From: Lichina pygmaea
Lineage: Eukaryota; Ascomycota; Lichinomycetes; Lichinales; Lichinaceae
Assembly: GCA_963422465.1 (NCBI GenBank)
Contig: OY730169.1
Location: forward strand, 1-64,000
Reading direction: 5' to 3'
Length of the DNA: 64,000 nt
The notes under the pieces were generated by a model. That model worked only from the letters and a program-made list of their open reading frames with translations, ran no database searches and had not been told where the DNA came from. The position numbers were made by a program, and so were the translations under genes. Positions within the stretch are counted from its first letter, which is position 1. The number at the start of each line of letters is the position of its first letter. Below, piece by piece: positions 8,360-8,860 of the stretch.

Positions 8360-8860
8360 TCAGGAACCTTGTGAACTGCCAGCTCCTCCTGCAGCAGTTC
8401 CGGCAGGAGTAGGACTGAACAGCTCGGCCTGCAGTGTGGACGCATCAATGACTGTCGCCGACAAGTCTTCACCATCCGCCTCCATTTCAGCAACAAGGCA
8501 CTGGAGCTTCTTCTTTGCTCGACTCTCAGCACCCTCAAGAACCTTTCGCTTTCGGGACACACGAGCCTGCAGCTCAGCAAGCTGCTCAACAAGAGCATCC
8601 CGCTTGGCCTCATCGACAGCCAAATCCTCGCGAAGGTTATCCTGAGTCATGTTCAGTGACTCCCAAGAAAGTGATACACAGGACTTTCCCTGACGAGTGC
8701 ACTCAGCGCACTTCAACTTATTGTTGTAGTCAGACATTCGGAAGCAGGGCTTGTGGTTCAAAACACAGAAGTCACACGGAGCAAGTGACACAAAGTTATG
8801 ATCACAGATCTGGGCTGCCAGTTGGTTTCGGTAAGCAGAGGCACGTGATTTTGCAGACAT
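8360..8860 (-). CDS. Antisense ORF of A1: Zn2Cys6-like, coiled-coil protein
   Basis: A 166-codon ORF runs antisense to A1, from an ATG at 8860 to a stop at 8360. It overlaps the end of the sense chromodomain region tail to tail. Residues about 29-62 hold six cysteines in the order CX2CX6CX11CX2CX6C (CDFC, KPC, KCAEC, GKSC), which fits the fungal Zn2Cys6 DNA-binding signature. A long charged helical stretch follows (about 75-140, rich in E, K, L and A), suitable for a coiled coil, and then a small-residue tail. TATAAA on the minus strand at 8934-8939 inside the 3' LTR lies about 75 nt upstream of the ATG. The same ORF is whole in A2. Zinc binding and regulation are inferred. The basic residues typical of the DNA-contact loop are few, so a structural zinc domain is an alternative. 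Confidence 0.6.
   Translation of the reverse strand: MSAKSRASAYRNQLAAQICDHNFVSLAPCDFCVLNHKPCFRMSDYNNKLKCAECTRQGKSCVSLSWESLNMTQDNLREDLAVDEAKRDALVEQLAELQARVSRKRKVLEGAESRAKKKLQCLVAEMEADGEDLSATVIDASTLQAELFSPTPAGTAAGGAGSSQGS

What the first reader, a model, noticed from the sequence alone, without database searches (positions are those of the whole stretch)
8360..8860. Antisense Zn2Cys6-like gene carried by a chromovirus
Family A elements carry a 166-codon antisense ORF between the chromodomain and the 3' LTR. Seen directly: six cysteines in CX2CX6CX11CX2CX6C, a following charged helical stretch, an ATG 75 nt downstream of a TATAAA in the LTR, and equal-length open copies in A1 and A2 (11459-11959) although both sense pol regions are broken. 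Known: this spacing is the fungal Zn2Cys6 DNA-binding signature, usually followed by a coiled-coil dimerisation segment. Inferred: an element-encoded regulator transcribed from the 3' LTR, comparable in position to antisense genes of some retroviruses. I do not know of a description for fungal chromoviruses.
Basis: partly seen in the sequence, partly recalled or inferred. Interest (0 to 1): 0.85.

Follow-up and report, generated by a model that had tools for sequence, protein, structure and literature searches.

The report
Antisense zinc-cluster-like gene in fungal retrotransposons
Two families of fungal jumping genes carry a backward-facing gene for a small cysteine-rich protein that shows signs of natural selection; it probably regulates the jumping gene itself, which gives a poorly understood kind of gene a testable function.

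Summary
Window 8360-8860 (-) is a 166-codon ORF at the chromodomain/3' LTR end of a Ty3/gypsy chromovirus, with CX2CX6CX11CX2CX6C, a long predicted helix and a TATAAA upstream in the LTR. It looks like a real gene: in 151 copies, variants shared by many copies are mostly at third codon positions and rarely at second positions; single-copy variants are not. New here: a second chromovirus family (C, window ~25.8-27.7 kb; 40-42% identical in integrase/chromodomain) has an antisense ORF in the same slot, with CX2CX6CX8CX2CX6C and the same sign of selection. In both, the LTR holds an array of 7-bp inverted repeats between an antisense TATA (weak in C) and a sense TATA; a third family without the ORF showed no such dyads. 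Best reading: an element-encoded, dimeric, zinc-cluster-like regulator of its own two-way LTR promoter. The gene is well supported; zinc, DNA binding and transcription are inferred. Zn2Cys6 membership is not shown: family A copies have no PF00172 match, family C's best copy falls just under the cut-off. An antisense gene in a fungal chromovirus is not new (brtn of Botrytis Boty elements, known here from citing papers).

The parts
2922..9503 (+). element A1 (chromovirus family A), LTRs 2922-~3562 and 8905-9503, flanked by CTCAA target duplications (2917-2921, 9504-9508, read by eye)
   Evidence: repeats, LTR pair alignment and flanks, Pfam RVT_1, rve (under its cut-off) and SH3_Tf2-1 in A1
8360..8860 (-). 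antisense ORF of A1, 166 aa, open, Cys cluster aa 29-61, predicted helix aa 66-128
   Evidence: codon-position pattern of shared variants over 151 copies
11459..11959 (+). antisense ORF of the inverted element A2, 166 aa, open, 92% identical protein
39114..39611 (-). antisense ORF of A3, decayed (4 stops, 3-nt gap)
8934..8939 (-). TATAAA of the presumed antisense promoter, at the start of the 3' LTR
   Evidence: same six bases in 53 of 54 copies with sequence there, not informative at 0.7% divergence
9015..9233 (.). array of 12 heptamers (5 GTCTTGA, 7 TCRAGAC), mostly in alternating orientation, partly in 42-nt tandem repeats (9031-9176), between antisense and sense TATA
   Evidence: TCRAGAC-N10-GTCTYGA dyads, 2-7 per copy, in 54 of 55 copies with LTR
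9262..9267 (+). sense TATA-like box of the LTR (TATATA, which reads on both strands)
26674..27246 (-). antisense ORF of element C (second chromovirus family), Cys cluster 27159-27070; this copy has 2 TAG in the aligned part and 2 stops near its N-terminus; many of the 150 listed genomic copies are open over the aligned part
25767..26750 (+). integrase, SH3 and chromodomain end of element C, sense
   Evidence: Pfam SH3_Tf2-1 2.9e-15 and Chromo 2e-14; tblastn with family A integrase, 40% identity
27382..27523 (.). 35-nt tandem array in the C LTR, four units with GACAAGC...GCTTGTC
27358..27362 (-). TATAA at the start of the C LTR, 116 nt before the antisense ATG at 27246 (weak: the stricter pattern found none)
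27575..27580 (+). sense TATA (TATAAA) of the C LTR

Best explanation
The ORF is a genuine accessory gene of at least two chromovirus families. An antisense promoter at the outer edge of the 3' LTR transcribes it back towards pol. Its product is a small protein of about 166-190 aa with two CX2CX6C half-clusters, presumably folding around two zinc ions, followed by a long helix that would dimerise it; basic runs (RKRK, KKK) could act as a nuclear signal. I think the dimer binds the inverted-repeat array in the middle of the LTR and sets the balance between sense (gag-pol) and antisense transcription, so that the element regulates itself. Shown here: the ORF, its position in two families, the six conserved cysteines, a protein-level selection signal in both families, and the LTR layout. 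Inferred: zinc binding, dimerisation, transcription from the LTR, nuclear entry, DNA binding and regulation.
For: Family A, 151 copies: non-CpG variants present in 13 or more copies lie at codon positions 2/0/13 (N 4, S 11; third position p 2.7e-5); all variants in 2 or more copies 26/15/42 (p 0.0006 for second low and third high); singletons 27/20/29. Family C, 41 copies, part not overlapping pol: variants in 2 or more copies 21/5/34 (second position p 1.7e-6), singletons 12/8/10; in the 20 copies taken without regard to stops, 10/4/21 (p 0.0016, 0.0009) over the whole stretch. Cluster cysteines kept in 145-151 of 151 (A) and 39-41 of 41 (C) copies, while some neighbouring positions vary between Arg, Cys, His and Gln. 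Best C copy matches PF00172 at E 0.0008. AF2 of A1: helix 66-128, block means of pLDDT 82-95 over residues 71-130. Heptamer arrays lie between opposed TATA boxes in A and, with a weak antisense TATAA, in C. The repeat unit of B-type LTRs, a family without the ORF, has no dyad (one family only).
Against: No RNA data. Five family A copies, three of them CpG-rich, give no PF00172 match, and loop 1 of A1 (VLNHKP) lacks the basic residues of GAL4-type proteins. AF2 confidence over the cysteines is about 40-55, and 44 for the C piece. A and C proteins are 23% identical and score no better than shuffles, so a common origin is not shown. The A class of 6-12 copies runs against the trend (6/3/2, N 8, S 3). 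Fisher tests of shared against single variants give 0.07, 0.06 and 0.004 in A and 0.25, 0.09, 0.06 and 0.025 in the C sets. In the 30 copies found by a pol DNA query, singletons were also third-heavy (10/3/13, N 13, S 13), so the contrast is weaker there. The pol control was no sharper (common class 4/8/16; 2-3 copies 9/6/4), and an LTR control in an arbitrary frame gave 2/1/7. The dyads could serve host factors; CGG, the usual Zn2Cys6 half-site (recalled), is not the repeated word.
Confidence: 0.45

Rival explanations
1. Same gene, different job: a zinc-binding coiled-coil cofactor that acts by protein contact (chromatin targeting with the integrase chromodomain, nuclear import, RNA handling or blocking host silencing) and does not bind the LTR.
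For: A1 lacks the basic loop 1, and five A copies have no PF00172 match; the best weak zinc-type Pfam hit of A is PHD-like, E 0.005-0.014 in 3 of 5 copies; the structure rows cover only the long helix, with low Z.
Against: The LTR dyad arrays accompany the ORF in two families; one C copy resembles Zn_clus, just under its cut-off.
Confidence: 0.33
2. The antisense transcript, not its protein, matters (an RNA or dsRNA regulator); the ORF is a passenger.
For: Antisense RNAs of LTR elements are known and could feed small RNAs (discussed in PMC7264820, passages seen).
Against: Third-position excess and second-position depletion in both families and retention of the six cysteines are protein-level signals.
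Confidence: 0.1
3. A captured host Zn2Cys6 gene fragment carried as cargo.
For: Zn2Cys6 genes exist in this genome: 34 of 40 listed PF00172 matches lie over the cut-off.
Against: The same slot and orientation in two diverged families with many copies is unlike a one-off capture. No host parent was seen, but the 150-match caps would hide one.
Confidence: 0.08
4. Chance ORF without function.
For: Most family A copies are broken by stops: 24 of 136 gap-free rows have none. Long ORFs arise in 3 of 1000 shuffles.
Against: Stops are almost all TGA (274 of 285), as expected from CpG decay after insertion. Codon-position signal and recurrence in a second family.
Confidence: 0.03

Closest known systems
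brtn, antisense gene of Boty-like elements (Botrytis cinerea, Sclerotinia sclerotiorum), Zhao et al. 2011 Virology 417:248
   Same: Fungal element with gag-pol including a CHROMO domain and an additional antisense ORF between pol and 3' LTR (from passages in PMC7264820, PMC8365987, PMC4227169; the 2011 paper itself is not held).
   Different: BRTN sequence and any Cys cluster could not be compared here; homology is untested.
Antisense additional ORFs (aORF-3R) of plant LTR elements: Grande gene23, RIRE2, Retand TRP28
   Different: Plant elements; Retand is a non-chromovirus lineage with a TRP28 domain. The word zinc does not occur in PMC7264820, nor zinc finger in PMC11963269.
Fungal Zn(2)-Cys(6) regulators, PF00172 (GAL4 type)
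   Same: Six-cysteine spacing, then a coiled-coil-like helix.
   Different: Family A: no profile match, no basic loop 1 in A1, only 166 aa. Family C: sub-threshold match.
HBZ antisense gene of HTLV-1 (recalled; PMC7264820 mentions the antisense promoter in the HTLV 3' LTR)
   Same: Antisense gene driven from the 3' LTR, coding a dimerising nuclear regulator (recalled).
   Different: HBZ is a bZIP protein (recalled); no homology is claimed.

Membership tests
Zn2Cys6 binuclear cluster (PF00172) | CX2CX6C-X5-12-CX2CX6-8C spacing (range recalled) | tested here: met
   A: X11 linker; C: X8 linker
Zn2Cys6 binuclear cluster (PF00172) | profile score over the curated cut-off | tested here: not met
   A: no match in 5 scanned copies at E up to 10. 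C: best 19.9 bits against 21; 3 of 20 members at E up to 1
Zn2Cys6 binuclear cluster (PF00172) | basic residues between Cys 2 and Cys 3 (recalled) | tested here: inconclusive
   A1 VLNHKP: not met; C copy L171 RRDHTK: met
Zn2Cys6 binuclear cluster (PF00172) | coiled-coil dimerisation segment after the cluster (recalled) | tested here: inconclusive
   AF2 helix 66-128 of A1, block pLDDT 82-95 over residues 71-130; a coiled coil or dimer was not modelled
Zn2Cys6 binuclear cluster (PF00172) | zinc and DNA binding | not testable with these tools
   needs biochemistry
Chromovirus (Ty3/gypsy) | RT, integrase core and C-terminal chromodomain | tested here: met
   A: RVT_1 5.2e-32 (A1), rve 8.8e-8 and Chromo 1.3e-15 (A3); C: Chromo 2e-14, SH3_Tf2-1 2.9e-15; RT of C not looked at
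[quoted passage not shown]
The slot was seen directly in A1, A2 and the window C copy; 54 of 55 A copies with flanks carry the LTR dyads just beyond the ORF. Elements without the ORF were not counted
brtn | sequence homology with BRTN | not testable with these tools
   no BRTN sequence at hand

The most novel reading that the evidence does not exclude
Fungal chromoviruses carry a self-contained regulatory switch: a two-way LTR promoter with a central array of inverted-repeat operators, and an antisense gene for a dimeric zinc-cluster protein that binds it. The layout is kept across families whose integrases differ by about 60%, while protein and operator words evolve together. It would be a retrotransposon analogue of HBZ/Tax-type retroviral self-regulation, built on a zinc cluster.
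Probability: 0.3. Interest if true: 0.75.

Novelty: new variant of a known kind. Interest (0 to 1): 0.6.

Why it matters
Antisense extra genes of LTR retrotransposons have been reported since the 1990s in plants and since 2011 in a fungus, and the review whose passages I saw (PMC7264820) calls their function unknown. Here two diverged families in one genome share the slot, the six-cysteine layout, a codon-level selection signal and an LTR operator-like array. This gives a concrete hypothesis (zinc-cluster dimer on the LTR dyads) that RNA-seq and binding assays can test. It also shows that decayed, CpG-mutated copies can reveal selection on a retrotransposon accessory gene.

Tried and rejected
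Relatives outside this genome: three scans of viral contigs and one of genome contigs gave no relative; these are viral and prokaryote collections, so this says little. PDB sequence searches gave nothing meaningful. Structural comparison covers only the helix; the Cys part is untested, and Zn2Cys6 chains do not appear among its three listed rows. Sequence homology between the A and C proteins: hmmsearch and hhalign no better than shuffles. Motif chance in C: 0 of 20000 shuffles of L171 but 14 of 20000 of the Cys-richer L159. A sense-strand cause for the codon pattern: the sense frame whose third positions coincide with the antisense ones has 5 stops in A1 and 4 in A2, and all sense frames of two C copies have stops; rejected. 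CpG columns were left out of the quoted selection counts because they decay after insertion. TATA conservation across A copies is uninformative. A first count of LTR heptamers anchored only 2 of 55 copies and was redone. The organism was not identified: 7 large contigs plus one, 32.5 Mb; a Histoplasma assembly such as WU24 (PMC8725592, passages) fits in size and chromosome number only. A tiling-array study of that genus left repeats out (PMC3207942, passages), so it cannot show antisense transcripts. Literature: eight searches showed, in listings and passages, no Zn2Cys6-like antisense ORF in fungal elements; the survey PMC3248453 holds neither antisense nor zinc; subscription papers are mostly not held. 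One search was an empty script.

Full report
What is there. The window begins with a CCCTAA telomere array and holds many retroelements. Element A1 (2922-9503, target duplication CTCAA read) belongs to a chromovirus family with RVT_1, rve and Chromo domains (A1 and A3). On the minus strand at 8360-8860 lies a 166-codon ORF; its inverted neighbour A2 has one of the same length at 11459-11959, and A3 at 39114-39611 is decayed. The sense frame ends at 8412, so 53 nt overlap the chromodomain end and 448 nt are free of pol. An ORF this long arises in 3 of 1000 shuffles and the motif in 0 of 20000.

It looks like a gene. The window's own genome (32.5 Mb, 8 contigs) gave 150 scored matches, the cap, from 511 candidates. 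I used 157 loci, 151 distinct copies. In-frame stops in them are 274 TGA, 7 TAG and 4 TAA, so decay after insertion is mainly CpG deamination. Leaving CpG columns out, variants seen in one copy fall at codon positions 27/20/29 (N 52, S 24). Variants in 13 or more copies fall at 2/0/13 (N 4, S 11), and all in 2 or more copies at 26/15/42 (N 44, S 39). Older, shared changes thus lean to silent sites of the antisense frame. Against this, the class of 6-12 copies is 6/3/2, and Fisher tests of shared against single variants give 0.07 and 0.06 for 3 or more and 6 or more copies and 0.004 for 13 or more. Most copies were found by protein similarity, which could favour silent change. In the 30 copies found by a pol DNA query, variants in 2 or more copies were 9/0/10 and in 5 or more 1/0/4, but singletons were also 10/3/13. 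The pol control over 55 copies was no sharper (singletons 15/6/15, 2-3 copies 9/6/4, 4 or more 4/8/16), and an LTR stretch read in an arbitrary frame gave 2/1/7 for its 10 common variants, so small counts need care. No sense frame explains the pattern.

A second family. Scanning all six frames of the window for a loose, stop-free form of the motif gave three places: A1, A2 and 27159-27070 on the minus strand. The third lies in another chromovirus, C, after its chromodomain (piece 26301-26750, Chromo 2e-14), and reads CX2CX6CX8CX2CX6C, then a charged stretch. A and C are 40-42% identical over integrase/chromodomain; family B, in which I saw no such ORF and whose LTR abuts pol, is 34-38% identical to them. 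The C ORF scored 150 matches, the cap, from 273 candidates. In 41 copies (20 chosen for open frames, 20 taken at steps down the list, and the window copy) shared variants outside the pol overlap fall at 21/5/34 against 12/8/10 for singletons; the 20 taken without regard to stops give 10/4/21 on their own; Fisher tests give 0.25, 0.09, 0.06 and, outside the overlap, 0.025. The six cluster cysteines are kept in 39-41 of 41 copies, while other cysteines vary with Arg and His. In A they are kept in 145-151 of 151, while Cys19 is Arg in 35 and His in 2. One C copy matches Zn_clus at E 0.0008, 19.9 bits, cut-off 21; 3 of 20 members match at E up to 1. Both antisense ORFs end opposite chromodomain codons. 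Direct A-C protein homology is not supported beyond shuffles (23% identity), so common descent rests on position, orientation and cysteine layout.

Shape. AlphaFold2 on A1+A2 gives a helix 66-128 (block means of pLDDT 82-95 over residues 71-130) and low values over the cysteines; the isolated C piece is not modelled with confidence. RKRK and KKK lie in the helix.

LTR layout. In A the antisense TATAAA (8939-8934) and a sense TATATA (9262) flank 12 heptamers GTCTTGA/TCRAGAC (9015-9233), partly in 42-nt tandem repeats. TCRAGAC-N10-GTCTYGA dyads occur 2-7 times per copy in 54 of 55 copies with flanks. In C, a weak TATAA (27362) and a sense TATAAA (27575) flank four 35-nt units, each with GACAAGC...GCTTGTC. 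Arms this long arise in 40 of 2000 (A) and 17 of 2000 (C) shuffled units; the A1 5' LTR unit, with CpG changes, gives only 6-nt arms (191 of 2000); the B-type 45-nt unit has none. This is the layout expected for a two-way promoter with operators for a dimer, but other uses are possible.

How it may work. I propose antisense transcription from the 3' LTR, a dimeric zinc-cluster-like protein entering the nucleus, and binding to the LTR dyads to balance sense and antisense output. Only the ORFs, their codon signal and the DNA layout are shown.

What is known. A review of plant elements describes antisense ORFs between pol and 3' LTR as frequent and of unknown function, and names Boty of Botrytis and Sclerotinia (PMC7264820, passages). 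A Boty-like element carries gag-pol with a CHROMO domain plus brtn (PMC4227169, passage); brtn is called the additional antisense gene in the title of Zhao et al. 2011, cited there and in PMC8365987; that paper is not held. A Monilinia transcript resembles truncated Pol and BRTN (PMC5987419, passage). Retand antisense ORFs encode TRP28, predicted to bind DNA (PMC11963269, passages). So the kind is known; the zinc-cluster-like content, its recurrence in two families, the codon evidence and the LTR dyad arrays were not met in my eight searches.

Noticed in passing
2544-2957, 9572-10531, 43824-48463: A1 appears to sit inside ORF1 of a LINE-like element (by inspection); another copy with open ORF1 (466 aa) and ORF2 (1080 aa) lies at 43824-48463 on the minus strand.
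   Followed up: partly
17574-22897: A third chromovirus family (B) in which no antisense Cys-cluster ORF was seen; its LTR abuts the end of pol.
   Followed up: partly
27770-27892: An inverted, about 82% similar fragment of an A-type LTR next to the C LTR that still holds CCTATAAAT, the antisense TATA of A.
   Followed up: partly
family A, 151 copies (L001-L157): Stops are 274 TGA, 7 TAG, 4 TAA, which points to CpG deamination rather than CpA-type repeat-induced mutation; listed family C copies with stops show mostly TAG.
   Followed up: partly
G000, all contigs: Only 40 PF00172 matches were listed in the whole genome (34 over cut-off), few for a filamentous ascomycete (recalled); intron-split genes may be missed.
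   Followed up: no
59602-60185: A stretch matching only the A-type LTR, with a CpG-richer 42-nt array (TCGAGAC-N10-GTCTCGA).
   Followed up: partly
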